The notes beneath the pieces were generated by a model. That model did no database searches. It saw only the letters and a program-made list of their open reading frames with translations, and was not told where the DNA came from. Below, in pieces: positions 484 through 54,190 of a stretch of 64,000 nt of DNA. The stretch comes from Paracamarosporium sp. OC-R06-R3 (Eukaryota > Ascomycota > Dothideomycetes > Pleosporales > Didymosphaeriaceae), in the NCBI GenBank assembly GCA_019828545.1, contig JACVRA010000274.1, positions 1 through 64,000 on the forward strand, written 5' to 3'. Within the stretch, counting starts at the first letter, position 1, and the number at the start of each line of letters is the position of its first letter. A program made the position numbers and the translations under genes.

Positions 484-3400
484 CTACAGCCCTTGCGATT
501 GAACTAGGGCATGATAAACGCCTTGCATCTGTAGCAGGGCGTCATGAGCCCCCTGTTCGACTAACCTCCCCTTGTCCAACACATAGATGATGTCCGCATG
601 TTGGACAGTCGCCAGTCGGTGAGCGATGGCGACAGTAGTGCGCCCTTGGCGCGTCGCTTCCAACGCAGTCAGAACGAGTTTCTCGCTACTGTTGTCAAGC
701 GCTGACGTGGCCTCGTCTAACAGCAGAATGGGACTGTCGCGCAGGAAGGCGCGAGCAATGGCGAGACGCTGCTTTTGCCCGCCAGAAAGCATACTGCCCC
801 CCGATCCGACTTGAGTATCGTAACCCTCGGGGAGGGAAGTGATGAAGTTGTGAATGTTGGCAGCTCGGCAGCTGGCGTGCAGTCGCTCCTCACTGACGAG
901 CTCGAATGCATCTTGACCAATCATCAGGTTTTCGCGAATCGTGCCCGAGAACACGGCAGGTTCTTGACTCACGAGTGAGATCATCTGTCGGTAGCTGTTC
1001 AGGTGAAGATCGCGAATATCGTGGCCATCCAATGTGATGCGACCATACGTAGGGTCGTAGAATCGCTCGAGGAGCGCCAGTAGTGTGCTTTTCCCACTGC
1101 CACTGCCGCCTACGATCGCAACAAACTTGCCCACCGGGATTTCGAGGTTGATGTGGCGCAGAACCATCGTTTGCGGACTGGAAGGGTACGCAATCGATAC
1201 ATTTTCAAATGCGATGTGCCCCTCGTTGTCCTCCCGTGATACTCGCTTCCCTCGCTGAGACCAGGAGTCTATCTCTGGCGTCCTTTCAAACAGCCGCTTC
1301 AACTCATGGGCAGCAAGTGCTGCCTTGCTCATATTTGGAGCAAAGTTGAACAGCGCGCCGGCAACTGCAGCTCCCCAGACTAGAGCAATAAGACATATAT
1401 AGTACTGCGTTAAGGTGTATTCTCCTCGGGCAAGCAGAAAACTTCCATACCAAAATGCCAACGCAGAGGCCAGGAAATTGATCCCCTGAGATGCTGCGTA
1501 AAGTGCAGAGGTGCGAAGAATAGGCCCCAGAGATTGGGCTGCTTGCGCTGCCAGGATCGTGCTATACCTGTGGAGCACATACCTCTCTAAGCCGGCAGAG
1601 GCGACAACCCGTATTGCACCAACGACCTCGCCCGCGTAGGCAGCGGCTTCCTCACCAGCCTGGCGGATCTTGCCGTCGAAGACCATGATGACCTTGAGTC
1701 GGACCCAACCAAGTCCAGCGAGAATGGGCACGAGCGGGAGGCAGAAGAGCGATAGCTTCCACGCGACGCCCAGGCCTACGCCCAGGGCCAGGGCAATGGT
1801 TGAGGAAAAAGTGACAATACTGCCAATGACAATCCCACTCAAGCCCATCAGATCAGTGGCACTGCTGCTCAGCTTTGATGCCATCCGGATGAGATCATGT
1901 GTCTTCTCATCGAAGTACCCGATGTTTTGACGAAGGATGGCCCGCAAAGTTGCATCGCGGACACGGCGGGCGAGTCTCTCAGTTGAAACTGCGAAGAACA
2001 CACCATTGAGCATGCCGACGATGAAGCCATAGATTCCTGTAATCGCAAATATCGACGTCCAGAACTCTGTGCTTCTCATCATTTCGTGAGCATTTGTGAG
2101 TGAGAATGCATTCAGCGTGTTCGCATACCAAATTGCTGGTATGATCAGATTGGCGCTGGCCAGTAAGGAAGTAACAATCCCTCCACAGAGGTACCATCGC
2201 TCTGGCCGGTTCAAATGTAGGATCATCCGTAGAGCACTCCAAACTGATGGCATACCATTCTGCATTGCGAGATCCTCGTCTGCGCTGCTCGTGGCTTTGA
2301 CAGACTCTACACCGTTTTCGACAAGTTCGTGCAGCTCTATATCGTCGAGGTCGTCGTCGCTGCTATAATCTTCCGTCTCTTCGCTGTAAGCTCGATCATC
2401 AGTGTGCGGTTCTGTCGTTGCGGTTCTCAGTTGATGCTTGTGGATGAGTTCTGCATAAAGTCCACGCTGTGCGAGCAGTTCGTCGTGGTTCCCTTGCTCG
2501 AGGACCTCTCCGGCCTGCATCACGACGATGTTGTCTGCATTTCGTATTGTAGATAGGCGATGTGCGATGACGATTGTCGTCCTGGTCCGAGAGGCAGACT
2601 CCAAAGCTTTTTGAATCACCTTCTCCGAGTGTGTGTCAAGTGCAGCTGTGGCTTCATCCAGCAGAAGTATCTTGGGGTCTGAGACAATCGCATGAGCGAT
2701 GGCTATGCGCTGGCGCTGTCCACCGGACAATGAGTGACCTTTCTCGCGGAGTTCGGTATCGTAACCCCGAGGCAGTGCCATGATGAAGTCATGTGCGTAT
2801 GCCGCCTTCGCAGCTGCAATCACACGCTCTCGATCCTCCTCATCATTGTTGGACATCGTTGCAGAGCTAATTAAGCCGTGGCGAATGTTTTCGAAGATTG
2901 TGGCGTTGAACAACGTCGGTTCCTGCCCAACATAGGCCATTTGCTTCCTCCACCAATACAGGTTCAGATCGGCCAGGTCGATACCGTCGACGCGTATCGA
3001 TCCCGCTGTGGGCTCGTAAAACCTCTCCAGTAGGCCCAGGATGGTACTTTTGCCACACCCAGAGAGACCAACCAAGGCGGTAGTCTTGCTAGCCGGTATG
3101 GAAATGGTAACGCCCTTCAATGCTTTGGTTTGCCTTCGAGAAGGATAGACGACCTCTACATTCTCGAGCTCGATGTTCCCTGTCAGTCTGTCGGGAATGA
3201 GTCCGGTGCTCGCAAATGGATCCATCGCAGACCGCCTATGGATGATCTTGAAGGTGGCACTGAGGCTGCTCATGCTGGCCACGAAACTCTCTAGGAGAGG
3301 AATGACACGAAGCATGGAAAAAGCACCGTTAACTACGGTGATCGTCGTGGCAACTACGGCTGCCACGTCAGAATCTCCTTTGCTGAGGAAGTACTTAGCA

Positions 3401-4518
3401 CCAGCCCAAAATCCCAGCGCATACGCCCAGTTAGGCATGCCGCTCGACCAGCCAAATGCCACTGCCATGTAGACGCGAGACTTGATACCGTATTTCTCAG
3501 CGCCACGAATGAACTTTTCATACTTTTCAGCCAATTGATTTTGACTGTTGGAAGCTACGACGTGCTTGATGTTCGAGATTGCTTCATGCGCAACGTTAGA
3601 GCCGACAGAGTAGAAGTTCTTGGAGATTTTGGAGTTTTTGACTGCAAAGCGCGAGCTGGACATAGTCACCAAGATCATGGCGACAAGAATGCTACAAAGG
3701 ATGAAAGCCAGCCGCGGGTTCATGATGAAGGCAATGGCGAATGCGGATAGAAAGTTGGCCGCCGCAGTGAGAGCAAGAGCCGATTTACTCGTCAGTCCCT
3801 CCTGCACTTCGATCATGTCCGAGGTAATGTGAGTTGTGAGCTGTCCAATGCTGACAGTGTCGAAAAAACTGATGTTTTGGCGCACGATTGCCTCCAGATA
3901 GGTCCTCCGCAGTCGACGCACAATTCGCTCGCCAGACCAGTAGAACCCAACCGTGCAAATATAGGATGAGACGAATTCAACGCCTGCAAGATATACAAAA
4001 TACCACGCAAAGTGATCAGTCCGGCCAAGCAGTTCTCCTGGTAATATGGATCCATCCGCGAAACCGACGAACGCTCCCGTCAATTCGCCAAAAAGTAGCT
4101 ATCGATTAAAAGGTCAGTCTTTCTGCTGCTTGTCTTGTTGGAAATGGGATGATTGAGAGAGGAGTGGACGGACAGATATGAATGGGTTCGCAGCTCCCGC
4201 AACAATACCAGCCATTGAGCTCAACACAATGACCATTTTGTCCCGTTTTGTGGCATACGGCCACAGAGAGAACTTCTGGTGATTGCGAGTAGATGGAAGT
4301 CCATTGAGTTGACGATCAAGAATGGCCCTTTCTTGCTTGCTGAGCGCGACACTTTGCTTCTCATCAACGGCGTCCCACTCTGGTAGAGCGGGACTCTCGT
4401 CATCGTCCTCGCTCATGGGACGCAACGGGATGTACTCGTCTTCATTCTTGTCCACGAGATGTAGTGGCGTGTTCTCATCATCACTGTCCATTGAGTATCG
4501 TTGCAAACTTCGAGGCAT
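484..4518 (-). CDS. ABC multidrug exporter, full-size (ABCB/MDR type)
   Basis: ATP-driven export pump of the plasma membrane, probably moving the cluster product or a toxic compound. Exons are 4174-4518 and 484-4098; the 75-nt intron (4099-4173) joins NPFIS to LLFGELTGAF, the usual place of the first transmembrane helix. The protein has 1319 residues in the order TMD-NBD-TMD-NBD. NBD1 has Walker A GLSGCGKST near residue 459, signature LSGGQRQR and Walker B ILLLDEATAALD. NBD2 has GGSGSGKST near residue 1112, LSGGQKQR and ILLLDEATSALD. A very acidic linker (SSDDDLDDIE) separates the halves and the N-terminus is acidic and cytosolic. All catalytic motifs are present, so it should be active. The length is normal for the family. 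Three ACAGTCA/TGACTGT sites lie just upstream. Substrate cannot be read from sequence. Confidence 0.95.
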
Positions 4519-4620: not shown

Positions 4621-4770
4621 ACAGTCAGAAATAAGACATGACCTCCTTGACATGCAGAGTCGTCAGAGCCGAGCTATGTTCGGGTAATAAGTAGTCAGAT
4701 GCTTAGTGCAAAGGTCATCAGCTACCCCACATGCGGTCGCGGCTGACTGTTCAACACATGTTGACAGTCA
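4621..4770. promoter_or_regulatory. ABC gene promoter with three ACAGTCA/TGACTGT sites
   Basis: ACAGTCA at 4621-4627, TGACTGT at 4744-4750 and ACAGTCA at 4764-4770; the last two form an inverted pair 13 bp apart. They lie 103-252 bp upstream of the ABC transporter ATG (4518). The same heptamer is found upstream of most genes of the left block, which encodes its own bZIP regulator. Binding is inferred. Confidence 0.5.
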
Positions 4771-6107: not shown

Positions 6108-8162
6108 CTAAGAGATTTCTATATGAAGCTCGTTTCGAATCTCAGTCGCTAACTCAAGGAGATGTAGTCGACTTTGTCTCGAGAAGATGTGTAAGTAAGA
6201 CACGAAGCTGTTTGCTCCAGTAGACTGATGGCGCAATTGATCGCCCTTTTTCGCAAAAGTGCGATGCTGAGACACATGCTTGGCTAGGTCTGGCCGCCGC
6301 TGTAACAGTTCTTCCGTGATGTTACCCGACTCCCAGATGCCCTTCTTTGGTGGGTCCCAATCGGCAATGATCCACACTTTATCGGCGTGGTATTGAGCTC
6401 CATCGCGATACGGCTGCGAAAGCGCGTGTACCCATTCTGAGGCGTTGCGAAGCTTTGTGACGAGCAAGAGGGCCCAATAGTCGACACCCCACGTGGCCTC
6501 GATGAAGTCGCAAGTGTCGCCGCCTGGAGGCCGGGTGTTGATCTCTATGAGCCATGACTCTGCGGGCTTACCATTGTGGTCTTGACGTGGCTCAAGGGAA
6601 GGGATGCCCCGTGAATTGAACCGCCATTCGACCAAGGAGTTTTCAATGCGAGCCTCGCAGTGGTAGATCCCGTTGCGGAAACCGAGGCGAGTCATAGACC
6701 CTAGGACGGCGTCGTACACAGCTCGTTGTTCGGCCTCGGGGAGTTGAGATGGGAAGAGATAGTCGAGCTCGCCAAAGGAGGTCGAGCCGCCATCGGCGTT
6801 TTTGGGAGTCTCATCACCGATATCTACTCTTAATCAGCTTGTGTTACGAGAAGGAGTGAACAATGACATCATACCCCAGAAACACACTTCGCCATCATAC
6901 AAGACGAAGTTGATATCGACTTCAGGACCACTGCAGTAATGCTCCATGACAAATTCGGCGCCGTGGCTATCGGATCTCATGCGGGGAGCGGCCTGTTCCA
7001 GCTGTTCGATGTCGTCCACCTTGAACACCAGCTCCGACGCCCATCCACGACACGGCTTGATGATGAGCGGCCACGGCAAGTCCTCCGTCCTCGCGATATG
7101 CAAAGCTTGGTCTACACTTGATGCGGTGTAGGACTTGCGGCCTTCAGAGAGACTGGTCTTGAATTTGTCCGTCGCGACCTCGTACGCAGACAAGGGTTCG
7201 TGGGACAAGCCAAGCTGTTGTGCGGCAGTCGAGACAGGGACATGGTAGCTCTCATACGCGTTGAGGAGTCCGTCTGCCGATCTGCCAGAGTCTTGCTCAT
7301 ATTGCTTGACTGCGGAAACGATTCTCGCGGGGAATTCGGCATCATATCCACATTGGATGGGAATGAAGTGGTGATACCAGTGGCTGAGTTCGGGTTGCTG
7401 CTTGAGAGCATGGCCCTCCTCTGCGAGGACCACGAGATCGATACCCAGAGACTTGGCCGTCTCATAGAGTTGCCACGAGCAAGCACCGCCAAAGGGAAAG
7501 CCGAGCCCACCCTCCACCATGAATAGCAATTGCCGCTTCAGGCCGGTGAGCAGGAGCGGCAGACTCAGGCGCTTCTCCAGCTCGCGTTCGAGTGCTGTCC
7601 AGGCGTCGGCCATGGACACCACTGACAGCGGGCTCAGACGAATGGCGCCCGCGGCGGTGCGGAAGAGTGTCGACAGAGAGGTGGATGCTGTCCACGATTC
7701 GTCCGTGTACAGTTGCAAAGGCTCTGCGAGCGCCACCGTCGCCTCGACATTGTCGACATCGTGCATGCGCTTGGGCACAATGTCCGCGCGCACGATGTTG
7801 CCATGTCCTCGCGGGGCGATCAACGTGATGGCTTGGGGAGCGTGTGTGGTGGTGGTGCGCTGGAGTGTGTCGACGAGGAAGTCAAGACTTCGACGTCCAA
7901 TTACACCTTCAGCCAGCGCAACTCTCTCGCCTGTACCCTTCTGATCCGGATCCTCGAGGGAAATGGAAATGCCTCTCGTCGTCAACGCACCAACGTCCGC
8001 GACATGCTCGTCAGCATTGGTGATGGCCTCGATGGTGATATTCGCCCACTGATAGAATCGCGGCTTATGGGCGGCGACACTCCAAGTGATCTTCCACCGC
8101 CTCTCCCGCTCCCCATGAGAGCCCCCTTCCTCCCGACAGACAATCTGCGCAGTCCTACTCAT
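6108..8162 (-). CDS. ATP-grasp amino-acid ligase (carnosine-synthase/BacD-like), copy 1
   Basis: Exons 6875-8162 and 6108-6823; intron 6824-6874 (51 nt, phase 1). The start is the ATG of MSRTAQIVC; the frame stays open upstream, but the divergent partner starts at the matching place. 667 residues. The C-terminal half is an ATP-grasp domain: the ATP-binding lysine lies in IIKPCRGW (K369), then EHYCSGPEVDINFVLYDGE (residues 407-425), then the magnesium-binding ExN in LIEINTRPPGG (E523, N525). The N-terminal 300 residues are a family-specific substrate or pre-ATP-grasp region. Such enzymes activate a carboxylate as acyl phosphate and join it to an amine, typically making dipeptides or amides. 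No signal peptide, so cytosolic. It is paralogous to the divergent gene at 8486, with the intron at the same codon and phase. Substrates unknown. Confidence 0.88.
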
Positions 8163-8485
8163 CGTGATGACTCGGTTCGGTGGGAGATGGAGTAGACAGA
8201 TTCGGCGACCGCGGGAAATGCAGACTACAAAAGTCTTGCTGCCGACCGTGAGTTGTTGGTGGAAGCACGGAGCACAGTCAGCCCGCACAGTCAGCCTGCA
8301 TGGGCAGAAGCGATTCCGGCGCAACACCATGATTTACAACACAAATATTACTACAGGACAACGGGGACGGCGTGGTCTTCCATTCAATTTCGTTCGACTC
8401 GCCGTCCGGAGCAGCATACAGGAGGCCATACAGGAGAAGCGTGCAACAAAGAAACCTTAGCTACGACCAGTCCCTGCGCTGCACC
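8163..8485. promoter_or_regulatory. Bidirectional promoter of the two ATP-grasp genes
   Basis: 323 bp lie between the two divergent ATGs. Two copies of ACAGTCA sit 6 bp apart (8274-8280 and 8287-8293), near the middle, so one pair of sites could control both genes. Confidence 0.55.
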
Positions 8486-10503
8486 ATGTCGTGCCTGATC
8501 GTCCTCCAAAGCGCAGATGGTTCCGAGGCGTCGTGGAAGGCGTCGTGGACGGTGCTGCCCGTGAAGAATGCCGACCAGTCCTTCCAGTCCGCCGACGTGC
8601 TATTCCAGCGCTTGTCAGCTCCAGCCAACTTCACATTGCCCGAGCACTCTTTGCGTTGTTACATAGAGGACCCCGATCGTGGCCGACTGGAACTCCAAGC
8701 GGCTACATTGGGCCATCCCCACGCCCTGGAATTTCTGGTCGATACTCTAAAGGCCACGACTCAATCACTGAACGCTGGCCAGACAGCGATCAAATTGGTC
8801 GCTCCGGCTCATGCAGGCAATATCGCCCGAGCCGACATCGTGCGTCAGCGGATGCAGGACATTGACTATGTCGAAGCCGTGGCCACTTTGGCCCAGCCCC
8901 TTCAGCAGTACGATGGGCAATCGTTCTCCGACACTGATGACCTGGTCACTCTGACAAAGCACTCTGCCGGGGTCATACGCCTGCGTGCCAACTCCCCTTC
9001 TGTATTGGACACCCTTTCCGTCCTCGAAAGCGAACTGTTCAATCGATTGCCAAGCCGTTTGACTGTCCCCGGCCTCTGCAGACGCACTTTAGCATTCTTA
9101 GAAGGTAGCGAGTATCTTCCAGACACGGGTGGTTGTGCAACACAATTCTACAGTGCCGCAATAGCGTTAGGCGTCGACGTTATAGTGCTTGGCGTCGAGG
9201 GCCATTGGCTACAAGGTCCGGAGTACAGCCACTGGCGGAAGGCTTTCATTCCCGTTGAATTTAGCCATGACGCAGCCTTCCCATCAAGAATTGTCGCGGC
9301 TGTCAAGAAATCGGGTGAGCCAGTTGAGGCTCTGCTCACCTCCTTTGATAGTTACCAAGTTGCCGTGAGTCAGGCTGCTGCCGAGCTGGGTCTTCCCCAC
9401 GAGCCTACCGCTGCCTACCAAGTTGCCACGGACAAGTACCAGCTGAGTGCCGTCGAGGGTCGGAAATGCTTCCTTGCCACTGGAATCGAGGATCTGATTC
9501 AAACCGCACTGACCAAGGACGTCACGTGGCCTGCGATCGTCAAACCCTGTCGTGGTTGGGGTTCTGAGTTGGTCTTTCGGGCCGATAGCGCGACGCAACT
9601 TGTGGCGTGGGCCAAAACGATCAACCCTGCCACGAGTCACGGAGCACAATTCGTAATTGAACCGTACTGTGATGGCCCAGAGGTGGACATCAATTTCGTC
9701 CTATACAATGGTGAACTTCTCTTTTGGGGTAAGGCTACATCGCTCCTCTACCAGTCGCAAAGCATGCAGGCTCACATTAAACAGAGATTGGAGACGAGAA
9801 TCCAAAAGGTGCCGAGGATGGGTCCGATTCGTTCCACGAACTCGACTGTGTCTCACCTTCAGCACTGCCCCAAAAAGAGCAGCATGTCTTGCGCGATTCA
9901 ATTGTGAAGACTTTGCTGGGGGTGGGCTTTAAAAATGGTATATACCACTGCGAAGCTCGAGTAGCCGACTCCACCCAAGAATGGCGCAAGAACGAGTCCG
10001 GCGCACCCGTGCTGCTACCTCGCTGCGAGCCAACCACGAAGCCACCCTCCTGCTTTCTCATGGACTGTAATATCCGGCCGCCAGGTCTGAACTCCAGCGA
10101 TGTGGTCGAGACCACCTGGGGTGTGGACTATTGGGCTTTGCTAATTGCCATACCACTGCGCGAGGAGCAGCGGGTTCGGGCTTTGTCGCAGCCATATCGT
10201 AACGGCCCACAGTACTTTGCGGACATGATCTTTGTCTCTGCCGCGTTTGATGCCTCTAAGCAAGGCATTTGGCAATCCGGAAATGTAACAGAGGAACTGA
10301 AAGAACGACGTCCAGATCTGGCGAAATACATCTCAAAGGCCTTGACCTACAAGAAGAAGGGAGATAGAATCCCCCATCCTTCTACAGGCACAAACACATT
10401 CGTCGCATACTTGAACATCTTCTCCCGCGAGAGTCGAGAGCATGTTTTGGATATTGCGACCCAGGTGAGGAAAGAGATCAGCAAAAGCATTGAGATCTCC
10501 TAG
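8486..10503 (+). CDS. ATP-grasp amino-acid ligase (carnosine-synthase/BacD-like), copy 2
   Basis: Exons 8486-9728 and 9785-10503; intron 9729-9784 (56 nt, phase 1) at the same place as in copy 1. The ATG is preceded by CACC. 653 residues. Motifs run parallel to copy 1: VKPCRGWGSEL (K353), EPYCDGPEVDINFVLYNGE (392-410), FWEIGDENP after the splice, and LMDCNIRPPG, where the metal-binding acid is Asp508 instead of Glu, with Asn510 kept. The change is conservative, so activity is likely. Divergence from copy 1 is spread along the whole length, so this is an old duplication with presumably different substrate choice, for example successive coupling steps. The spacer to the dioxygenase gene (10504-10921) holds the facing 3' ends and nothing else that I can see. 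Confidence 0.88.
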
Positions 10504-10921: not shown

Positions 10922-12287
10922 TTAATGACCAAGGTCTTCCGTACGTGATTTCGAATTTGGATCCAAATATGGTTTCTCGCCAATACCCAATGCTCTCTTA
11001 CCTTTACGAGGTCCAAGATGATCATAATCCCATGTCACACAATGGAATGTGCTCCGGTTGTCCCAGAGAACTGTAAGATGACTCAGCACCAGAACAAATA
11101 TACATGTATTGTCCGTTCAAATGGGACTTACCGAGATCGTTGGGATTGGAGTATTTGATCCTGACCGTTGTATCATGGTTCTTGTACAGAATGCTGATGA
11201 CCCAGTCGAGCAGCATCTGGCTCTCTTCTGATGCAAGATCCTTGATCGATATCGTGTTCTGGCCCAGGGCATAAATCGACTTCCATCCCGTCACCGGATT
11301 CGTTCGCACAAAGGGCTGTTCGTGTCGGAAGTAAAGCCCGGAGTTTTGAGGACAGCCACGCTCTTTGGCGTACAGATTGGGGTTCTCTGCTCGCACTGCG
11401 TCCTCTAATGACTGTATCAACATGTCAGTAGACCCACAAGACAACATGCCTAGTGGATAGAATGTGCCGTCGCACGTACCGGGCTTCCGTTGATGATCGT
11501 AAGGCTCTCAACGAACTGCTGCATGGGCTTAGAGAGACGATCGTAAAGCTGACACATTGGTGTTAGTTTGCGGTCAGCAGATCGCCTTCTGTCACTTACC
11601 TCGCATCCGGATGCAAACATGGTGTCTATGCACTCCGCGTTAGCCTGCAAGCTTCGAGTGGAAATCTGGGGCACTCAATGTACATACCTCCTCCAGTCTC
11701 CGGAATTTCTGGTACGATAAAGGCGGAATAATCGCCTGGAACAGCCTCAAAGCCCACATCTGAGTGCCAGTTGTTGTGTGATTGGCTTTTTTTGCTGTTG
11801 TACAACTTCTTGCGATCATCGGAGCTGACGCAATTAATCTGGTTGTCCTCCTCCAGACCCTCCCTGGCGCTGTTGAACACTGGGTGGATGTGAAGCCCGC
11901 ACTCTTCTGGTCGCCCAGTCAGCTCGCCAAGCCTGAGAGCTATCTTTTTCAGCATCTCATTGTCTACGTCGTCCTGAGCTCGAAAGACGACGACTCCACG
12001 CTGCGAGACTGCCCGGGGGTGTCAGTGCTTGCACTGCATATCGTCTTCGACTAGTGTTTCTACTCACCAGTTATGGCCAAGTCTCGGATGAGCTCATCGC
12101 TGTTTGGAGCGTTCATCCATTCGGTGATACTGGCTTTCGGATATTCTCTACCCAGAAGAGATGTAATATCAACATACTCAACCCCATCAAGGGCACCAGA
12201 CAATTTCATAGGCTCTTTGAGCCGAGAGTAGGGCCCTCCGCCTAGAGGGGTTGCTTTTGGCGCTTCTCCTTCAAGTAACCACCCCAT
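10922..12287 (-). CDS. TauD/TfdA-type Fe(II)/2-oxoglutarate dioxygenase
   Basis: Six exons: 12068-12287, 11688-12008, 11600-11625, 11548-11480, 11132-11411 and 10922-11070, joined by introns of 51-74 nt with good GT-AG ends. The product has 354 residues; the start is the ATG of MGWLLEGEAP. The iron ligands are H155 and D157 in NNWHSDVGFE and H315 in NRSTFHCVTWDY; the 2-oxoglutarate-binding arginine is R327 in HLGPRKGKR. The tail reads DPNSKSRTEDLGH. This family hydroxylates or desaturates small molecules such as taurine, sulfonates and amino acids. All catalytic residues are present, so an active cytosolic tailoring enzyme is expected. A 26-nt micro-exon (11600-11625) makes automatic models likely to fail here. 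Substrate unknown. Confidence 0.88.
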
Positions 12288-17341: not shown

Positions 17342-18889
17342 TCACTCTAGCCGCTCGAACCGAAACGAATAAGTGTACACGTCTTCCTTCATCACCAGCG
17401 ATCGATACGCATAGCGTCTTTCGCCATACACGACCGCCTTCCAGCCAACCGGTGTCCCAAAGCGAAAGATCCGCGCTGTATTGTTGTGGTTGTACTCGAG
17501 CTTCTCCCAGCACTTCTCGCTACTGGCATCCGGGAAGTTGTTGATATATGTGTCTGACAAATCGTCAACGTCGAAGGTGACGGATTTCCTGGCCCGCAAA
17601 AACATCTGACTGATCGTCGAGACAAAGTCAAAAGGTTGCAACAGATGCATCGAGCCGAAACACACCACATGATCGTGCATGGGGGCACTGGCAAGGACTT
17701 CTTGAACAGGCCCAAGGATGAAAGGCTGTTCGTAGAGTCTCTTGGAGAAAGGTAGCTTGGTCATTTCGACCGAATAGTCGAGGGCGGAGTACTTCGCTTT
17801 GACCCCGTGTTCGATGGCAAACCGAGCAAATTCCCCACTCCCCGAACAGCAATCTAGAACGGTTCCGTTATAGTCGTACTTGCCAACGAATGGACTCAAC
17901 CGGTTCTCCGTGACGTTGGTGGAGTCGAGAATGGTGTAGTAAAGACGAGCAAGCCTATCGTGCTGCCTCGCACAGCCCTCATTTCGCATGACATAATGTG
18001 GGACCCTGGCAAGTCTGGCAGACAGGAGGATTTCGAAAAAGGCTGCATGCCCACCCGGTAGCGTCTTCGCAATAGTCAACGAGTCCAATGGAGTCACATC
18101 CTGAGGATAGAAGATGCGCGATGCAGGATCCACATTGGTGACAATGAGGGTATCTGACGCTTCGGCCACGCGGATATTTACTGTCAAGTATCCAAGGTAC
18201 TTGGTACCGCGAACCTGCTCAAATGCAGACACTGCGGTTTCTTGCAGTCGGCGGCTCAAGTTTGACTCGGGTGCAAGGACCCACGTGGCTTCTTGACCGT
18301 CTTTGACTGCCGCTTGGTATTTCAATGGTGTTAACGCGGAGGCGGTTTGCCCAAACAGCACGACCAGAATGGAATAGTCGCCATCCTGGAATTCTCGAGC
18401 CTGATTTGGTAGTAACGCTGCAGTCGGCGGAGACTGCTCATCGCCCTGGTAATCGGAGGTTTGCGCCCTCTCCAGGTTTGCTGCGCAGAGGTCCAACGCA
18501 GAGTCTGGCAGACTACCGATGCCAAACAGATATTTCGAATTCAGATACTTCAGTGCCGCAATCCACTCCTGATCGATTGGCTGCTGCGTGAACTGAACAC
18601 AACGATCGTTAGGCCGCAAATCAGGAGCAGAATACATTCCAATCTTACCAGATAGTTGACGAAGACATCGAAGTTCCCGATCTCGAGCTCGTCTATGTCT
18701 TCGATGGCATGTTCTTTCCTAATCTGCCTTGTCTGCACTGAGTGCACTTCTTGATCGATGTAGCTCGCGAAGTCTGGCTGCAAAATGTCAATATGTTTCC
18801 AACTGGATAGCACATGGTGTGTGATTGAATACCTGGACAGCTGCTTCAGCACCCGAAGCTGAGCTGGGCGTCACCACGCATATTTTCAT
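17342..18889 (-). CDS. Degenerate D-Ala-D-Ala-ligase-like domain fused to a SAM methyltransferase
   Basis: Exons 18833-18889, 18649-18777 and 17342-18592; introns of 55 and 56 nt, both phase 0. 478 residues. The N-terminus MKICVVTPSS and FDVFVNYLFTQQ, and the segment YLTVNIRVAEASDTLIVTNV with NVDPASRIFYPQD (residues about 195-227), match the start and end of Ddl-type ATP-grasp proteins. I find no K-P ATP-binding motif, the middle is about 100 residues too short, and the metal-binding E of ExN is T, so ligase activity is unlikely. Residues about 285-478 are a class I methyltransferase with motif I TVLDCCSGSGEFA (D309) and VVCFGSMHLLQP. It probably methylates a cluster intermediate, with the ligase-like part possibly binding the substrate. 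Cytosolic. Confidence 0.75.
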
Positions 18890-19090: not shown

Positions 19091-19167
19091 ACAGTCAGGC
19101 TCTGACTGAAACACCTGGTCAGCCCAATGACATGTGACGAGGAAGTGCAGATCGAGCCTCAACAGTC
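19091..19167. promoter_or_regulatory. Divergent promoter with two ACAGTCA sites
   Basis: ACAGTCA at 19091-19097 and 19161-19167, between the methyltransferase fusion gene (ATG 18889) and the homoserine O-acetyltransferase gene (ATG 19415). They are 0.2-0.3 kb from both starts. Confidence 0.5.
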
Positions 19168-19210
19168 ATGCAAACGAGCAGAAATATTCCGATTCACACC
19201 GTCTGCGAAG

Positions 19211-19414: not shown

Positions 19415-20911
19415 ATGGCTGCAGCCCGCAAATTGGAGCCTATTGACCAAGATGGCGTCCGCCGATATAGTACATCGTCTCTTAGAGTCTGCCACTTCTG
19501 TGCCCCCGGCTGACAACTGGCAGAACGCATCAGATCTTGCGATCAGGTTGAGAATCCCTTGGTCAAGTACATCTTGAATCAGTATATCGCCATCGTTCCC
19601 GAATTCGCCCTTGAATGCGGTGCGACACTATTCAATGTTCCCGTCGCCTACCAAACGTACGGAACACTGGCACCCGGCCGCAACAATGCCGTCCTCGTCT
19701 GTCATGCTTTCACAGGAAGTGCCGATTTAGAAGCCTGGTGGAATCCGCTCGTAGGCAGCGACGGGGGCGTAGCGCTTGACACAAGCCGGTTTTTTGTCAT
19801 CTGTATCAATTGCTTGGGGAGCCCATACGGCTCAGCAAGTCCGGTGACTGCAGTCGATGGCGACCTCAACAAAGGCTGCTACGGGCCGGATTTTCCAATT
19901 ACGACGATTAGGGATGATGTGAAGCTGTTCAAATTGCTGCTAGACGACCTTGGAGTGAGACAAATCGCCGCTGTTGTCGGTGGAAGTATGGGCGGCATGC
20001 ATGCCCTAGAATTTGCTTACTTTGGAAAACATTACGTACGCACGATTGTCTCGATTGCGTCGTGTGCGCAGTCGTCGGCTTGGTGCTTAGGATGGAACGA
20101 GGCACAGAGGCAAAGCATTTTCTCGGACTCTAAGTACAACGGTGGTTACTACGACTTTGACGACCCTCCAGTATGCGGGCTTGGGGCAGCACGGATGAGC
20201 GCTTTGTTGACATACCGCTCCTGGAACAGCTTCGAAGATCGATTCGGCAGACGACAGGACAACGGCAGGAATGGTAATATCGACCACCAGCTGCGCGTAC
20301 AGCGTACGAATCTTCGCACTCTGCGATCGGATCGGATTGCATCACGTACCCCAGTCCATCGAAATGGAAACCGTGACAGTCGAGAATGCGAGTCGAATGA
20401 AAGTACAAAATCAGACACAATCTATGCAGCGCAATCCTATTTACGCCATCAGGGCAGAAAGTTCGTAAAGCGCTTCGATGCAAACTGCTACATTGCCATT
20501 ACTCGCAAAATCGACACCCACGATGTCGCACGCGGTCGCGCCAGTACGGCAAAGTCAGCATTAGAAATGATCCAGCAACCGACCTTGATCCTTGGAATTC
20601 CCAACGACGGCCTGTTTACCTACCGAGAACAGTGCGAATTATCGGCTGCAATCCCGAACGCCCAACTCAAGACGATCGGCAGCAATGATGGCCATGACGG
20701 CTTCTTGTTGGAGCATCAACAGATCAACAAGTTCCTGAACGAATTCTTCGAACGCGAACTAGGGAAAATCGCCTCCCATACATCGGGACAGCCGTTTACG
20801 CTGCCAGCTAAGACGCAGCATATGAAATTGGGTAGAGGACAAGAGGTGGATATCACAGCATGTGAGCACAGCGTATTGATCCGGAAGACCGCATTTTCGA
20901 CATTTGCATGA
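19415..20911 (+). CDS. Homoserine O-acetyltransferase (MetX/Met2-like)
   Basis: Exons 19415-19469 and 19524-20911; intron 19470-19523 (54 nt). The splice adds MAAARKLEPIDQDGVRRYK in frame; without it there is no ATG before the conserved part. 480 residues, alpha/beta-hydrolase fold. It moves acetyl from acetyl-CoA to L-homoserine. Catalytic triad: S173 in VGGSMGGMHAL, D380 in IPNDGLF, H409 in NDGHDGFLLE; also CHAFTGSAD (oxyanion) and FDANCYIAITRKIDTHD. The poorly conserved, Arg/Asn-rich insert after GRRQDNGRNG is usual in fungal members. A second, cluster-borne copy of a methionine-pathway gene suggests O-acetylhomoserine, a donor for PLP gamma-replacement enzymes, is a precursor, although no such enzyme is in the window. 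Confidence 0.9.
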
Positions 20912-21363: not shown

Positions 21364-23526
21364 TTGTTTGACATGAGTTCACACTGGATCTCTCGTTGTC
21401 CTACACATGAACCGAAAAAGGCGATCAAATTCAGTGATCGAAATCTCACACTGGTTGTGCTTTTCTGCATTGGCAGCATTGCCGCGTGTTACACCTGGGC
21501 GCAGGCTGCCGCCACTTTTACTCCGAAAGTCACAGTACACATCACCACAGCGCCCGGGTTACTATCGAATCCGGTGGAATCAGGCAGGGTTCTTCTCTTG
21601 CTGGGGAAGACCAAGGACGACCTCCGCAATACAGATGTCAGACATACGACGACACAATTTTTCGGCAAGAACGTCTACAGCTTCTATGGACAGGACGTGG
21701 TACTCACGGGCGGGAGTGTCGACGATATAGAAATTGGGGTGTTTGGATGGCCCATCCGTGCGTTGGACGACATTCCCCAAGGCGCGTACTTTGTTCAAGC
21801 CTTTCTCAATATCTACAACGAAACGATTACCCGGAGCGATGGATCTATGGTGACGGTCAGGTTTCCGTGTGGGGATGGCAGTCCTGCCTTCGGAGGGAGT
21901 GGGAGCCTCAGTACTAATATACGCGAAGTCGAGATTCGACGCGGGATGACGCAGACTATCAACCTGCAGTTCCAGACGACCGTCGAGCCCATTGCCTTCG
22001 ATGGGACGGAGATTGGTGGTTGCTCTCAGGGGAATTACAAAGACACCGAGCTGCTCAAATATGTCAAGATCCGAAGCGACTCTCTGAGCAGCTTCTGGAA
22101 CAGAGACATGTATATCGGCGCCAAAGTCCTCTTGCCAGCCGGATACAACGCGTCGGACACGCGTACGCGTTATCCCGTCGTATACTCTCAGTTTCACTGG
22201 CTTGGGGGCGAGAGTTGGTGGAGTCACGATGCAGCCTTCACAGAAGCTTGGCACAACGGCACGATTCAAGCCCAGGACGGGAAACCAGCACGACCGACTC
22301 CCAAGCTCATCATTGTCATGTTTCGCCATGAGAATCCATTTTATGACGATTCCTACGCTGTGAATTCGCCGAATCTGGGACCGTATGGCGACGCCTTGAA
22401 CGACGAACTGGTGCCCCATCTGGACATGATGTTCAACACGATTGCCCAACCGTATGCGCGGATACAGGAAGGTGGTTCTACCGGGGGCTGGGCGGCCGCT
22501 GCCAGTGTCATCTTTCGGCCAGATCTGTACGGCGCGTGCTTCGCTTCCTATCCAGATAGTCTCGATTTTCACCGGCACCAGGACAATAGTCTGTATGAGC
22601 AGGCAAATGCTCATGTCCGAAACGGCCTCCCGGTACCATCAAACCGGAAAGTTGACGATGACGGCGTAGAGCGCGTCAAGGTCACCATGGAAGAAGAGAA
22701 TCATTGGGAGCTCACATTCGGGACGTCTGGGCGTAGTGCCCTGCAGACTGACGTCTGGTTTGCCGTATTCGGCGTGCAGGGGCTCAACGGGTATCCTCTC
22801 GCCGCCTGGGACAAGATTACAGGAGAGATGTATCCGGATGTAGTGGAGCTCTGGAAACCCATGGATCTCACGCATCATATACTCAGCAATTGGAATAGCA
22901 AACTCAACCTGGGAGAAGCGCTTCGAGGGAGAATACATGTCTACGTGGGCGGTGTGGATAGCTATTATCTCGACGAAGGCGTTGAGCAGTTCCGCATGCG
23001 AATTACTGAAAAGGGAGGGCCAGAATGGGCCAATGTGACGGTGCTCCCGGGAGAGGCACATGGTGGGGTGTACAATTTGCTGCCGAAATGGACATATCTT
23101 GACTTGCTCCTTCAATGGGTTGCGCATCATGCCCCCGGAGGGAGAACGCCGCTCTCAGATGAGTACACTGGAGGCACATCGAGAGGGAACTTGTGGGAAG
23201 ACGTTTTGGCATTTGGGGGCCGTCAAGCAGCAGTCGCCCGCCAGTCGCCACCTCATATTGACATGTACCCCTCTCATCGGTCTGATGGGCGTTTACACGC
23301 TGAGCCGCAAGCCAGCGTTGGGCTTTGGGATCCAGGTGTTGCGTTGAAAGCCCAGTGGCTCGTGGATGGTAAGGTTGGCAAGGACAATGTGTTTGATGTC
23401 AAGCAACGAGAGACACTTACGTTCTCTGGTAATGCGCCGGGCCGGACGTTACAATTGGTCGTTACGGGCACCAAAAGAGACTACATCGAGGAAACGAGAC
23501 GAAGCAATGTCATTACCTTGGGATGA
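21364..23526 (+). CDS. Membrane-anchored esterase, PF00756-like
   Basis: Single exon. The frame opens with an ATG at 21373 (MSSHW) just after an upstream in-frame TTG; 717-720 residues. An N-terminal hydrophobic stretch, LTLVVLFCIGSIAACYTW (about residues 28-45), is a signal anchor or uncleaved signal, so the enzyme faces the cell surface or a secretory compartment. The N-terminal 200 residues form a beta-rich domain (VTVHITTAPG, GKNVYSFYGQ). The alpha/beta-hydrolase domain follows: YPVVYSQFHWLGG, nucleophile S372 in EGGSTGGWAA, and H566 in PGEAHGGVYN; D532 in VGGVDSYYLDEG may complete the triad. Related proteins are putative enterochelin-esterase or acyl-esterase types. The length, twice the catalytic domain, is as in other fungal members. 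Possible roles: product release, activation outside the cell, or detoxification. Confidence 0.75.
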   Translation: MFDMSSHWISRCPTHEPKKAIKFSDRNLTLVVLFCIGSIAACYTWAQAAATFTPKVTVHITTAPGLLSNPVESGRVLLLLGKTKDDLRNTDVRHTTTQFFGKNVYSFYGQDVVLTGGSVDDIEIGVFGWPIRALDDIPQGAYFVQAFLNIYNETITRSDGSMVTVRFPCGDGSPAFGGSGSLSTNIREVEIRRGMTQTINLQFQTTVEPIAFDGTEIGGCSQGNYKDTELLKYVKIRSDSLSSFWNRDMYIGAKVLLPAGYNASDTRTRYPVVYSQFHWLGGESWWSHDAAFTEAWHNGTIQAQDGKPARPTPKLIIVMFRHENPFYDDSYAVNSPNLGPYGDALNDELVPHLDMMFNTIAQPYARIQEGGSTGGWAAAASVIFRPDLYGACFASYPDSLDFHRHQDNSLYEQANAHVRNGLPVPSNRKVDDDGVERVKVTMEEENHWELTFGTSGRSALQTDVWFAVFGVQGLNGYPLAAWDKITGEMYPDVVELWKPMDLTHHILSNWNSKLNLGEALRGRIHVYVGGVDSYYLDEGVEQFRMRITEKGGPEWANVTVLPGEAHGGVYNLLPKWTYLDLLLQWVAHHAPGGRTPLSDEYTGGTSRGNLWEDVLAFGGRQAAVARQSPPHIDMYPSHRSDGRLHAEPQASVGLWDPGVALKAQWLVDGKVGKDNVFDVKQRETLTFSGNAPGRTLQLVVTGTKRDYIEETRRSNVITLG

Positions 23527-23913: not shown

Positions 23914-24004
23914 ACAGTCACCGCGGGGGGTTTCTGATACGTCACTACCTGACCACGGCACGATGTGGGGCGTACAGTCATGATATGCATAACATGCACA
24001 GTCA
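23914..24004. promoter_or_regulatory. Repeat-protein gene promoter with three ACAGTCA sites
   Basis: ACAGTCA at 23914-23920, 23974-23980 and 23998-24004, all in the same orientation, 230-320 bp upstream of the ATG at 24234. The first two share the longer match GTACAGTCA. No gene is seen in the rest of the spacer 23527-24233; CA-rich, AT-rich sequence precedes the ATG. Confidence 0.55.
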
Positions 24005-24233: not shown

Positions 24234-25219
24234 ATGCATTTCTCTCAGCTCATTTCTGGAGTCGGCCTCGCCTGCCTTGCTGTTACTGGCGCCCAGCCGA
24301 TCGAAGCGGAGTAAGTCTGTTGCGCCTCATCTTTTAGTAATATTTGCTAGTCATAGACACTCAGCTTACAAGGGGTAAAACAGACACAAGGCCCTAGGTG
24401 TAGTCGAACGCGGTGTCGTTGACCGTGGTGTCGTTGACCGCACTGTCGTCGACCGTGGTGTTGTCGACCGCGGTGTGGTTGACCGTGGTGTCGTTGACCG
24501 CACTGTCGTCGATCGCGGTGTGGTTGACCGTGGTGTTGTTGACCGTGGTGTCGTCGACCGTGGTGTTGTCGACCGCACTGTCGTCGACCGNNNNNNNNNN
24601 NNNNNNNNNNNNNNNNNNNNNNNNNNNNNNNNNNNNNNNNNNNNNNNNNNNNNNNNNNNNNNNNNNNNNNNNNNNNNNNNNNNNNNNNNNNNNNNNNNNN
24701 NNNNNNNNNNNNNNNNNNNNNNNNNNNNNNNNNNNNNNNNNNNNNNNNNNNNNNNNNNNNNNNNNNNNNNNNNNNNNNNNNNNNNNNNNNNNNNNNNNNN
24801 NNNNNNNNNNNNNNNNNNNNNNNNNNNNNNNNNNNNNNNNNNNNNNNNNNNNNNNNNNNNNNNNNNNNNNNNNNNNNNNNNNNNNNNNNNNNNNNNNNNN
24901 NNNNNNNNNNNNNNNNNNNNNNNNNNNNNNNNNNNNNNNNNNNNNNNNNNNNNNNNNNNNNNNNNNNNNNNNNNNNNNNNNNNNNNNNNNNNNNNNNNNN
25001 NNNNNNNNNNNNNNNNNNNNNNNNNNNGTTGTCGACCGTGGTGTTGTCGACCGTGGTGTTGTCGACCGTGGTGTCGTCGACCGCGGTGTCGTTGACCGCA
25101 CTGTCGTCGACCGTGGTGTGGTTGACCGTGGTGTTGTTGACCGTGGTGTCGTCGACCGTGGTGTCGTTGACCGCACTGTCGTCGACCGCCGTGGTGTGGT
25201 CGACAGGAACGTGGTCTAG
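24234..25219 (+). CDS. Secreted protein of tandem GVVDR/TVVDR repeats, candidate peptide precursor (interrupted by gap)
   Basis: Exon 1 (24234-24310) encodes a classic signal peptide, MHFSQLISGVGLACLAVTGA, then QPIEA. Intron 24311-24383 (73 nt, GTAAGT...CAG, phase 2). Exon 2 begins EHKALGVVER and continues as five-residue units: GVVDR with TVVDR after every 2-4 units. Thirteen units are visible before the N-gap (24591-25027) and about eleven after; it ends TVVDRRGVVDRNVV and TAG at 25217-25219. The two halves are in different frames because the gap has an arbitrary length; simple continuation needs 15k+4 nt. The only dibasic (Kex2-like) site is the RR near the end. The design (signal peptide plus short identical units) is that of fungal repeat-peptide precursors, but no UstYa-type protein is in the window. 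It could also be a structural wall protein. Family not recognised. Confidence 0.72.
24400..25215. repeat. 15-bp coding tandem repeat array with assembly gap
   Basis: Unit ggtgtcgttgaccgt with silent third-position changes (gtc/gtt/gtg, cgt/cgc) and recurrent ggt to act (Gly to Thr). The Thr units are always followed by gtcgtc. Silent variation with constant protein suggests selection on the peptide. GTCGAC in many units is its own reverse complement, which keeps other frames open on both strands. Confidence 0.95.
24591..25027. other. Assembly gap (437 N) inside the repeat array
   Basis: Run of N within the 15-bp repeat; the true copy number is unknown and the reading frame cannot be followed across it. 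Confidence 1.
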
Positions 25220-25815: not shown

Positions 25816-27770
25816 TTATAGAGGCATTGGCAACCCATTACGCCTAACCATCCACTGCCAGTCGCTAGCAAGCGCCAATTGTGCCCGATATATCCTGTCC
25901 TTCTCCGACTGCTCGATCCCTCCAAGACTCCTCCGAGTCAGAACATCCTCATGCTCAGCATCGATAAAGTACGGCCGGTCGACTTCACACGTTACATGCC
26001 TCTCGTTCGGCACTACCCCACCATTAAGATAATCTCTTATATAATTTGCCGCACAAGCTGACACGACAGAGACACTGCAATGCCCGACTCCCTTGATCTC
26101 CACCAATCGCGAGTCTCGAAAGAATTGTTGCGTGGTTTTTGCGGATATCAGGGGGCAAATGGGATCAGTCGTCATCGATACGATGAGCATGGGCTCTGCC
26201 GTCGCAACTGTCGACTGGGGAGTATATTCCATTGTTTTGGGCACGATCCATTGCTGTTTGGTGTAGTAGTCGAGATTCTCGCTCGGCCCAAACATGCTGA
26301 TGTTGACGAATGAGAGGACTGTCCCCTCGAGAAACTCTTTGCGGTCCTGCGTCCAGTAGTTCGGGCCGCTGCGGGCGTCGTTGTTGAAGACAAAGTTGCT
26401 CGAGTCGTCTCCCATGTCGAATGCTTCATGCTGGGCGTAGGCTAACCAGGCGTCGGTGGCATTGCCGTTGAGCACCTTTGCCAGGTTTTCTGAGAGTTCA
26501 TACCACTTGAGCGGCCTATACACTGAAGAGAGCAGTATTAGTGTGAGATGCAATTGTGGTCTGTCCTGGCTTTCACTCACGCGCGGGAAGAATGCCGTTG
26601 AAGAAGATGTTCTCATATGTAAGTTGACCCCATGCCGTATTGTTCACATACACACTTATGGGCTGCTCTTTAAGCCGCTCTCCGAGGTCCATCACTACCT
26701 TGCGCAAATCTTCAGCCGTTTCTCCGAACGACGATAGAGTGCAGTTTTCTTTTTCCTTCATGCACTGGCGAAATATGCCCATAAAAGCGTTCTCCGTATC
26801 GGTGTAGTGGATGCCATCGAAATCGCGGCCGTACCAGTGGAAGGAGTTGGACACTCCATCGATGATGATCCGCTTCGATCGCTCGGGAAACAATTGCGCG
26901 TACGTCTGGCCCAGAGTTGTGCCATAGCTAGAGGTGTCTTAGCCGGAGCACATTGAGACGAATTCATGACACGAACCTGAAACCCCAATAATACATGTCT
27001 TGTTGTCCGACTGCATCCAGGATACTATTCATATCGGCGGCGGTTTGAGGGGTAGTAATGTAACCACCCTGCTCTCCCATAGTGTCTTTGCAAGCTTGAA
27101 CGAACCCCTTCGCCCAGGCATACATTTCTGGACTGTCATGCACAGCCTCCTTACTGCGTACCGGACTCAATTGCGCCTTTGTCTCGTTGTCAGGATAGCA
27201 TAATGCACGAGGCACAGATCCATTAACCCCTCGTGGATCAAAAGAGACAATGTGCAAGCCATCGCCAACAATTTCTCTCAGCTGCGCCCCACGCCGGTAT
27301 ATTAATCGCATACCACTGCCCCCTGGTCCTCCGGGATTGAGCAAAAGATTCTGCGTCGCGTGCTCTCCACCACGTAGACGAATGACAGGAATGCGGAACG
27401 TCTGATCCTTACTCTTCGACGTATCAAAATGATCCATTGGAACGGTGAGGTTGACACATTCGAGTGGATGCCCGGCAACACTACCACACGGCTGCCACGA
27501 CACCTTCTCACCTGCGTACTGATGCCCTGAGCCTCCATTGCTTGAATCCCACCTCCGGCGTTGAGATAAAATCACAAACACGGCGCCTACCCAGATCTGC
27601 CCGGGAGAGTGAGTTTGCAAATAGACTTCAAAGTATTAGTATGAAAGAGCACTCACCACGAGAAAAGATGCTGTGGCAGCGATGAGGATTCCCTTCCATC
27701 GACCCGACCGAGGAGCTGTTGGAGGATTAAGATTCTCCTTGTCGTCGAGTCGTCGGTAGCTAGGCGCCAT
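25816..27770 (-). CDS. Membrane-anchored S33 / tripeptidyl-aminopeptidase-like hydrolase
   Basis: Exons 27657-27770, 26977-27596, 26581-26927 and 25816-26522; introns 60, 49 and 58 nt. 595 residues. The start is the ATG of MAPSYRRLDD. One transmembrane segment (about residues 25-49, ILIAATASFLV joined across intron 1 to IWVGAVFVIL) makes it a type II membrane protein with the catalytic part outside the cytosol. Alpha/beta-hydrolase: oxyanion NPGGPGGSG, DPRGVNGS, nucleophile S245 in YYWGFSYGTT (built across an intron), then the TAP-like C-terminal domain with D480 in MTTDPICPL and H508 in GVGHCS. Family members remove N-terminal di- or tripeptides or act as prolyl-type peptidases and hydrolases. 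Lying next to a secreted repeat protein, it could trim that protein; this is inference. Confidence 0.88.
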
Positions 27771-28010: not shown

Positions 28011-28259
28011 ACAGTCATCCTTATTTCTCGGGGATAGCAGCAGCAATCGTAGGCGCATGACTTAGGATTGCCACTTGGCATATCCCCTCGCATTGTCTAT
28101 CTAAACCTCCCTTGTGCAGGGCAATAGTCGATGTTTCGTGCGAGATTTTGTTTCTGAGTTTGTTTCGTGCGAGAGTTTGTTTCTGAGTTTGTTTCGTGCG
28201 GATCAGTTGATGTCCGGCTTGTCGACGCTCCAAAAGCCGCGGTAGAGGGCCCACAGTCA
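28011..28259. promoter_or_regulatory. Peptidase gene upstream region with two ACAGTCA sites
   Basis: ACAGTCA at 28011-28017 and 28253-28259, 0.24 and 0.48 kb upstream of the peptidase ATG (27770). Between them is a 29-bp tandem repeat. The spacer 27771-28807 otherwise shows no gene. Confidence 0.5.
28134..28200. repeat. 29-bp tandem repeat, 2.3 copies
   Basis: Copies at 28134-28162 and 28163-28191 and a partial copy 28192-28200; units begin tttcgtgcga and end ttctgagtttg, differing at one base (agatt/agagt). Confidence 0.9.
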
Positions 28260-28807: not shown

Positions 28808-30216
28808 TCATTCGTTTGGACTTCCAGCGTCGAGACTATCCAACAACACGCTGATTGCACACACTGTGGCTGCGGTTCGGTCTACATTTCCTTGGGGTTG
28901 AACGGACATGCCAAGCACGCTGAGTAGACTTGACAGGTTCGGTAACTGTGTGTAGAACGTTAAGCCTGAGTGTGAATTGTTCGCATGGGCATTGCTCTCT
29001 TACCTTGTCTTGGAACCGGCGTCTCTGTTCCGCCAAATTCCCCTCCGTGTTCTTGCCGTTTCCGTAAAGCTTGACGAATCGAGAGAACTCCTCGTCCAAG
29101 ACCTCCTCTGCTGATCGCAGAATCTCATCACGATAACGTTGTACCTCCCACTCCGTCCACTTGTCTCTCGAGTCTTCTTCAATCGAGCGCAGGAGATCGA
29201 CCAAACCTCGTCGACGGGATAGTAGACGTCTGTGCTGAAGGGCAGGTCGATGTTGAAGATCCGCAGTGTAGTACCGTGTAGCGAGCTCATCGACGCTGTC
29301 AAAGCCCAGCTCGCGAATAGCCTCAATCGCCTTCTCAATTCGTGTGGCAAGACTTCTTGGCGAGTCAATGTCACTGTTGGCTTTTTGTGAATCTTCGTTA
29401 CTCATCTGAGGCGTGTGCGTGTGAGGCGATCGACCTTCTGTCGATGATCCGTCTCGGTTGTCCTGAGTCGAGCTAGTCGAATTCCGACCAAAGTGGAGAT
29501 CGAAGAGGGCTGACGAGGGCGTATTGAAGTAATCTGCCGGTTGGTTTTGCGAAACAATGCATCGACTCGAACCGGCCGTGTCGTTGCACGAGTTGGCATG
29601 ATAGCTCTGAGGTGTCCCTTTGGCCGCAGTGGGAGCGTAAAGCAAGCTTTGTTCCGTGAAATTAGGAGTTCCCGGATTCAAAGATTTGCTGTTTCGATGT
29701 CCTTCTTGGTGACTGCCGGCCGACCAAGGCATAGCATCCGGTCTGCGCAAAATGTTGCCATCGCAATTCTGGACCATCTGAGCTGCAGGCTGCCCGGAAA
29801 GAGACGCAATATTGGCAGCCATATTCAAGCCCACATCGTTCAAGGTCGCTGACATGGACGCATCAGATGCTCCATCCGGTGAACGGCCAGGTGCGTAGGG
29901 GAAAGAGCCGTTCGGTGGAAGCTCTGCAGGGTCAGGCCACGAGTTCATTTCGTTTTGGAATTCTTGTTGTCCAGTCAGCTGTTCTAGTATCTTGAGCTTT
30001 TCCTCTACAATTCGTCCTTGACTATGATTACTGAAAGCTCATGACGGGGAATGGAGAACAAACGAACATACGGTGTTTCCGTTGTGCTACTCGATTCTGC
30101 ATACGCTTTCGCAATGTCTGATCGGAGATGTGGCGCCAATCATCATCATCGTTCGCCTCGGTTCTTGCACTTCTCTTTCGCGGCATGCTGATGGTTCTCG
30201 ACGGCGCTTCCTTCAT
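28808..30216 (-). CDS. bZIP transcription factor, likely cluster regulator
   Basis: Exons 30072-30216, 29004-30016 and 28808-28945; introns of 55 and 58 nt. 431 residues from MKEAPSRTIS, or 421 from MPRKRSARTE, 30 nt later. Basic region TLRKRMQNRVAQRKHR: N41-x7-R49-x9-L59 is the exact bZIP spacing, built across intron 1, followed by only LEQLTGQQ, so the leucine zipper is very short, as in many fungal pathway-specific bZIPs. The middle is Ser/Asn/Pro-rich. A conserved-looking C-terminus (RRFQDKLPNLSSLLSVLG) is seen only after removing intron 2; reading through gives a false tail. It presumably activates the genes to the left through TGACT-type sites; a TGACTGT site in its own promoter suggests autoregulation. 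Confidence 0.9.
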
Positions 30217-54178: not shown

Positions 54179-54190
54179 GATCGAGCCCAC

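What the first reader, a model, noticed from the sequence alone, without database searches (positions are those of the whole stretch)
484..30216. A biosynthetic block built around ATP-grasp ligases, without PKS/NRPS/terpene core
Seen: exporter, two ATP-grasp ligases, dioxygenase, aminotransferase, oxidoreductase, ligase-like/methyltransferase fusion, homoserine acetyltransferase, esterase, repeat protein, peptidase and bZIP regulator, adjacent and mostly with short shared promoters. Known: carnosine-synthase/BacD-type ATP-grasp enzymes make dipeptides or amides without a megasynthase. Inferred: a new class of fungal small peptide or amide made from non-standard amino acids. Standard cluster finders look for core enzymes absent here and would probably skip it.
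Basis: partly seen in the sequence, partly recalled or inferred. Interest (0 to 1): 0.87.

Follow-up and report, generated by a model that had tools for sequence, protein, structure and literature searches.

The report
Fungal dipeptide-ligase gene cluster
A fungus close to the barley net-blotch pathogen carries a conserved, apparently co-regulated set of genes that probably joins unusual amino acids into a small peptide-like molecule without the giant enzymes normally used, by a route with few studied fungal examples.

The parts
484..4518 (-). ABC exporter (two membrane and two ATPase domains)
   Evidence: Pfam; first exon; motif sites in its promoter
4621..4770 (.). ABC promoter motif sites 4621, 4744 (-), 4764; the last two form an inverted pair
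6108..8162 (-). AG1, BL00235/CARNS1-type ATP-grasp ligase; exons 8162-6875 and 6823-6108
8274..8294 (.). Direct pair of CTGACTGT sites in the shared AG1/AG2 promoter
8486..10503 (+). AG2, ATP-grasp paralogue with Asp at the metal motif; exons 8486-9728 and 9785-10503
11002..12287 (-). TauD-type Fe/2-oxoglutarate oxygenase (last exon not resolved)
12796..14052 (-). BCAT-type class IV aminotransferase
   Evidence: PF01063 77 bits; best PDB match E 5.4e-71
14557..14586 (.). Direct pair of CTGACTGT sites in the shared BCAT/Gfo promoter
14894..16473 (+). Gfo/Idh/MocA oxidoreductase; exons 14894-14936 and 14990-16473
   Evidence: PF01408 35.6 bits; exons
17342..18889 (-). Pseudo-ligase (Ddl fold) fused to a methyltransferase; exons 18889-18833, 18777-18649, 18592-17342
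19091..19168 (.). Motif sites in the shared fusion/MetX promoter
19415..20911 (+). MetX-type acetyltransferase, cluster-specific clade; exons 19415-19469 and 19524-20911 (first intron by comparison with the P. teres orthologue)
21372..23526 (+). Esterase-like protein; membership in the cluster doubtful (no motif in its promoter)
23914..24004 (.). Three motif sites in the repeat-gene promoter
24234..25219 (+). Secreted-type GVVDR/TVVDR pentapeptide-repeat protein; exons 24234-24310 and 24384-25219, with an assembly gap of 437 N inside
   Evidence: signal peptide judged by eye
25816..27770 (-). TAP-type serine peptidase
   Evidence: PF08386 51.9 bits; gene read
28011..28259 (.). Two motif sites upstream of the TAP gene
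28836..30186 (-). bZIP-like regulator (basic region by eye)
30345..30641 (.). Two motif sites upstream of the regulator

Best explanation
This is a conserved fungal biosynthetic cluster that makes a small dipeptide-like or amide molecule from modified amino acids without an NRPS. AG1 phosphorylates the carboxylate of one amino acid and joins it to the amine of another (inferred from fold, motifs and family). AG2 is its old paralogue and may take another substrate, form a second bond or partner AG1 (inferred). The BCAT-type aminotransferase, the methyltransferase on the fusion (perhaps acting on a substrate held by the dead ligase fold), the TauD-type oxygenase and the Gfo/Idh oxidoreductase prepare the building blocks; the MetX-type enzyme acetylates a hydroxyl group; the ABC transporter exports the product; a bZIP-like protein acting through TGACTGT sites switches the genes on together (all inferred). 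Shown here: the gene set, the conserved adjacency of four of the seven core genes, the fold of AG1, the loss of ligase motifs in the fusion, and the motif enrichment. Substrates, order of steps and product are inferred.
Against: No metabolite, transcript or enzyme assay. TauD, BCAT and Gfo relatives were not searched in other species. P. eumusae has AG2 on a different contig from fusion and MetX. The P. teres tags leave three places where four genes are expected. AG2 lacks the canonical Glu. BacD's Z (29.5-30.1) is nearly tied with a phosphoribosylglycinamide synthetase (28.9), so only BL00235 stands clear. The motif was first seen by eye; the TauD and esterase promoters lack it; looser motif pairs are common enough that reversed controls also match (9 against 17; 7 places against 3).
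Confidence: 0.7

Rival explanations
1. A conserved amino-acid modification or detoxification unit rather than a peptide pathway: the ligases add or remove protecting groups on a small metabolite taken up or exported by the ABC protein.
For: The product is unknown; ATP-grasp ligases of this fold also act on non-peptide amines (phosphoribosylglycinamide synthetase and others in the same list).
Confidence: 0.15
2. A ribosomal-peptide pathway: the co-regulated GVVDR-repeat protein is a precursor cut by the TAP-type peptidase, and the ligases and methyltransferase decorate the released peptides.
For: Three motif sites upstream of the repeat gene and two upstream of the peptidase gene; signal-type N terminus and perfect-length repeats.
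Against: No UstYa gene on this contig (0 of 75 genome matches); no KR site in the visible repeats; conservation of the repeat and peptidase genes in other species was not tested; C. zeina tags show the core only.
Confidence: 0.06
3. Two overlapping neighbours: the core (AG1 to MetX) is the pathway, and the esterase, repeat protein, peptidase and regulator are unrelated genes that happen to share a common promoter site.
For: Conserved order is shown only for MetX, fusion, AG2 and AG1; the esterase promoter lacks the motif; ACAGTCA is found 20 times in 103 kb of other genome pieces.
Against: Motif density and pairing in the block, including an ACAGTCA pair at the repeat gene.
Confidence: 0.25

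Closest known systems
BL00235 and BacD/YwfE L-amino-acid (dipeptide) ligases of Bacillus
   Different: About 210 extra N-terminal residues; 19-22% identity in the aligned part; fungal and paired with a paralogue that has Asp for Glu; one pattern scan of the prokaryote collection confirmed no relative
E-64 pathway (cp1/cp2) of Aspergillus with the ATP-grasp enzyme Cp1B (PMC12568646; abstract, part 1 of 14 and passages seen)
   Same: Fungal, NRPS-independent, an ATP-grasp enzyme with an Fe/2-oxoglutarate oxygenase
   Different: Cp1B is described as having no detectable Pfam domain and as closest to homoglutathione synthetase; E-64 clusters also have an amide bond synthetase and a PLP decarboxylase, neither recognised here
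D-Ala-D-Ala ligase fused to a methyltransferase, as in Colletotrichum P0067
   Same: Same two-part layout, 29% identity to the Boeremia orthologue
   Different: The window's group lost the EIN motif and about 40 residues of the ATP-binding part; P0067 keeps VLEIN and PF07478
MetX-family acetyltransferases, among them proteins named deacetylcephalosporin-C acetyltransferase
   Same: Serine, aspartate and histidine positions invariant in 13 rows (roles recalled); the P. teres f. maculata orthologue bears that name
   Different: A separate clade of 7 rows with long branches

Membership tests
BL00235/BacD-type L-amino-acid ligase (AG1) | PF18130 and PF13535 over cut-off | tested here: met
   P. 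teres orthologue (94%): 45.1 and 40.7 bits, cut-off 27 each. The window's unspliced exon: 41.3 and 18.1
BL00235/BacD-type L-amino-acid ligase (AG1) | Ligase fold | tested here: met
BL00235/BacD-type L-amino-acid ligase (AG1) | Metal-binding Glu and the following Arg (E-x-x-x-R) | tested here: met
   EINTRPPGG, aligned with EVGAR of BL00235 and ESAAR of BacD; residue roles are recalled
BL00235/BacD-type L-amino-acid ligase (AG2) | The same Glu | tested here: not met
   Asp in the window's AG2 and in 7 of 7 AG2-clade rows that cover the site; Glu in the other 28 of 35 rows; the other 17 of 52 hits do not cover it. AG2 is called a paralogue, not an active ligase
BL00235/BacD-type L-amino-acid ligase | ATP-dependent dipeptide formation | not testable with these tools
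   needs an enzyme assay
E-64-type cluster | Amide bond synthetase (AMP-binding protein) in the cluster | tested here: inconclusive
   No PF00501 match in 30 of 57 ORFs; none of 15 genome matches on this contig, but 14 of 105 candidates scored
Dikaritin-type fungal RiPP | UstYa (PF11807) protein in the cluster | tested here: not met
   0 of 75 genome matches on contig C118
Dikaritin-type fungal RiPP | KR (Kex2) sites between precursor repeats | tested here: not met
   No KR in the visible repeats, one RR near the end; the N gap hides the middle
Mycosporine-like amino acid cluster | Dehydroquinate-synthase-like enzyme | tested here: inconclusive
   None in 30 of 57 ORFs scanned; no dedicated search
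D-Ala-D-Ala ligase (fusion N-half) | Catalytic C-terminal domain (PF07478) with E-x-N | tested here: not met
MetX homoserine O-acetyltransferase | Curated model cut-offs | tested here: inconclusive
   NF001209 335.3 over 331; TIGR01392 425.2 under 500
Branched-chain aminotransferase | Curated model cut-offs | tested here: inconclusive
   PF01063 77 over 28.5; NF009897 261.2 under 307
bZIP transcription factor | Recognised bZIP domain | tested here: inconclusive
   Basic region by eye; no Pfam match; Pap1 at E 0.8

The most novel reading that the evidence does not exclude
A new fungal class of NRPS-free peptide: two diverged ATP-grasp proteins, one with an Asp-type metal site, work as a pair; a dead ligase fold presents the substrate to its fused methyltransferase; and the co-regulated secreted GVVDR-repeat protein supplies or receives peptide units cut by the cluster's own peptidase.
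Probability: 0.06. Interest if true: 0.9.

Novelty: new variant of a known kind. Interest (0 to 1): 0.62.

Why it matters
Fungal peptides made by stand-alone ATP-grasp ligases are barely explored: a 2025 paper calls Cp1B the biochemically validated example in fungal natural product biosynthesis (PMC12568646, passage). A cluster kept in several Dothideomycetes, many of them plant pathogens (recalled), with a different ligase family, a pseudo-ligase/methyltransferase and no ketosynthase on its contig, would be missed by searches keyed to PKS or NRPS genes. Its product could be a peptide-mimic antimetabolite or a plant-active compound, and AG1 could be a useful amide-forming biocatalyst.

Tried and rejected
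Aspergillomarasmine-type compounds of P. teres (passages of PMC9503419) as the product: their C-N links are not amides and no fitting PLP synthase was recognised in the block; set aside on recalled chemistry, not tested. Dikaritin RiPP: not met as a family. Mycosporine-type cluster: no dehydroquinate-synthase-like ORF among those scanned. Prokaryote relatives of AG1: 49 pattern matches, none confirmed (first of 2 scans; the second was not used); distant ones are not excluded. Other gene copies in the genome (C204, C12, C329) do not repeat the cluster in the pieces read: Pfam on 10 of the ORFs found there. Ptr ToxC: one literature search (listing only), no link seen. The 2020 Pyrenophora cluster survey PMC7232245 has no 'ATP-grasp', 'carnosine' or 'homoserine' in its main text (find; supplements not looked at). 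PMC7376913 mentions a carnosine synthase 1 gene in a Fusarium PKS cluster legend (passage), another context. That this cluster is not in print rests on ten searches of an open-licence library. The first 210 residues of AG1 gave no match in the rows listed and were not modelled alone, so nothing is claimed about their fold.

Results against the reading: P. eumusae has AG2 on another contig than fusion and MetX; the P. teres tag count is one short; 20 ACAGTCA and 4 ACAGTCAG in 103 kb of other genome pieces, so the single motif is not rare; that control is imperfect, since some pieces overlap and one (L028) was fetched because it holds the third CTGACTGT pair; reversed-pattern controls match 1, 9 and 14 rows against 3, 17 and 6, so only the 8-base direct pair and the local density carry weight; the fusion methyltransferase domain is under Pfam's cut-off in the window (25.1 of 27 bits), though found at E 0.01 or better in 15 of 15 relatives. 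The P. eumusae MetX is no closer by identity than housekeeping MetX; only the tree (long-branch warning) groups it with the cluster copies.

Rows dropped: the AG tree used 51 of the 52 hits (P0052 left out); alignment A3 used 35 of 52, the other 17 not covering the late motif; A4 used 12 of 120 listed MetX hits and the tree used 40 of 120; one search scored 7,998 candidates only, 7,997 and 7,988. Locus-tag order was read only from hits with visible tags.
Full report
What is there. The window is the left 64 kb of a 105.6-kb contig (C118) of a 43-Mb genome. AG1 is 94% identical to a Pyrenophora teres protein, so the organism is probably a Pyrenophora or close kin (inference). From left to right: ABC exporter (-), AG1 (-), AG2 (+), TauD-type oxygenase (-), BCAT-type aminotransferase (-), Gfo/Idh oxidoreductase (+), fusion (-), MetX-type acetyltransferase (+), esterase-like (+), repeat protein (+), TAP-type peptidase (-), bZIP-like regulator (-). 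Three divergent pairs share promoters: AG1/AG2, BCAT/Gfo and fusion/MetX.

Conserved clustering. The collections on hand give no fungal genomes to scan, so I used locus tags and contig lengths of protein hits. In Cercospora zeina the MetX, fusion, AG2 and AG1 relatives are BST61_g4191 (66%), g4192 (75%), g4196 (50% to AG1, the query) and g4197 (64%), in window order, with three tags left for Gfo, BCAT and TauD. In P. teres the fusion is PTNB73_10089 and AG1 PTNB73_10093. P. eumusae has MetX (AC578_4406) and fusion (AC578_4411) on a 36,620-base contig but AG2 on another.

MetX. At least two other MetX-like loci lie elsewhere in the genome, both on contig C331. In a 41-row tree (40 of 120 listed hits plus the window) the copies of window, P. 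teres f. maculata, Bipolaris oryzae, an unnamed source, Boeremia, C. zeina and P. eumusae form one clade, SH-aLRT 100, apart from 34 others; C. zeina and P. eumusae have long branches and the program warns about them.

Co-regulation. ACAGTCA occurs 22 times in the window against 9.2 expected; none of 100 shuffles reaches 22. 21 of the 22 lie in the first 31 kb, 16 of them in its 9.3 kb of intergenic DNA, where 300 shuffles give a mean of 1.7 and at most 7, and the most frequent of all 7-mers reaches 13 in any shuffle. ACAGTCAG occurs 10 times there against at most 7 for any 8-mer. Because I first saw the motif by eye, the comparison with all 7-mers and 8-mers is the fair test. Sites lie upstream of ABC, AG1/AG2, BCAT/Gfo, fusion/MetX, repeat, TAP and regulator genes, not of TauD or the esterase. 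Genome-wide, CTGACTGT-N0-30-CTGACTGT occurs 3 times, two in this cluster (reversed control 1); ACAGTCA direct pairs 17 times, 3 here (control 9); inverted pairs at 3 places, 1 here (control 7 places). Other genome pieces (103 kb, some overlapping) hold 20 and 4 copies of the 7-mer and 8-mer, against 21 and 11 in the 31-kb block. That the regulator binds the motif is inferred.

Core enzymes. None of 79 ketosynthase matches lies on this contig. The AMP-binding search scored 14 of 105 candidates and is not conclusive. The 30 of 57 ORFs scanned show no PKS, NRPS or terpene-synthase family.

How it probably works. The aminotransferase, methyltransferase, oxygenase and oxidoreductase shape one or two amino acids; AG1, perhaps with AG2, forms the amide bond with ATP; the acetyltransferase caps a hydroxyl; the ABC protein exports the product. 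Methylation of a keto acid followed by transamination is a known route to beta-methyl amino acids (recalled) and fits the BCAT/methyltransferase pairing, but nothing here shows the substrates.

Place among known systems. The E-64 paper (PMC12568646: abstract, part 1 of 14 and passages) describes a fungal NRPS-free pathway with the ATP-grasp enzyme Cp1B and names FsqD and AnkG as earlier proposals. By that paper Cp1B has no detectable Pfam domain and other structural neighbours, so this cluster works like that kind but with a different ligase family and different partners. My ten literature searches found no description of this cluster. Verdict: real, conserved, probably a new variant of NRPS-free fungal biosynthesis; product unknown.

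Noticed in passing
G000:C204:41994-43676, loci L021 and L022: Another ATP-grasp paralogue (32% to AG2) near a POT-family peptide transporter and, further off, a 2-oxoglutarate/Fe oxygenase: perhaps a second NRPS-free cluster.
   Followed up: partly
G000:C12:24381-25652, locus L023: A third ATP-grasp paralogue (33%) near a fatty acid desaturase and a prolyl-oligopeptidase-type peptidase.
   Followed up: partly
G000:C329:116673-118115, locus L018: A 54% paralogue of the Gfo/Idh oxidoreductase near a P450 piece and MFS transporters.
   Followed up: partly
24234-25219: Single-locus secreted-type protein of GVVDR/TVVDR pentapeptide repeats with a 60-base higher-order unit and an assembly gap of 437 N.
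   Followed up: partly
40454-40797, 48544-48897, 49221-49566: Tandem duplications with periods of 171, 180 and 147 bases.
   Followed up: no
34759-35652, 35971-36444, 46895-47938, 53381-54205: A DUF7770 protein, two APH-type kinase pieces and an amino acid permease right of the block.
   Followed up: no
G000:C258:50943-50961, locus L028: The only other CTGACTGT pair within 30 bases found in the genome, beside genes that look unrelated.
   Followed up: partly
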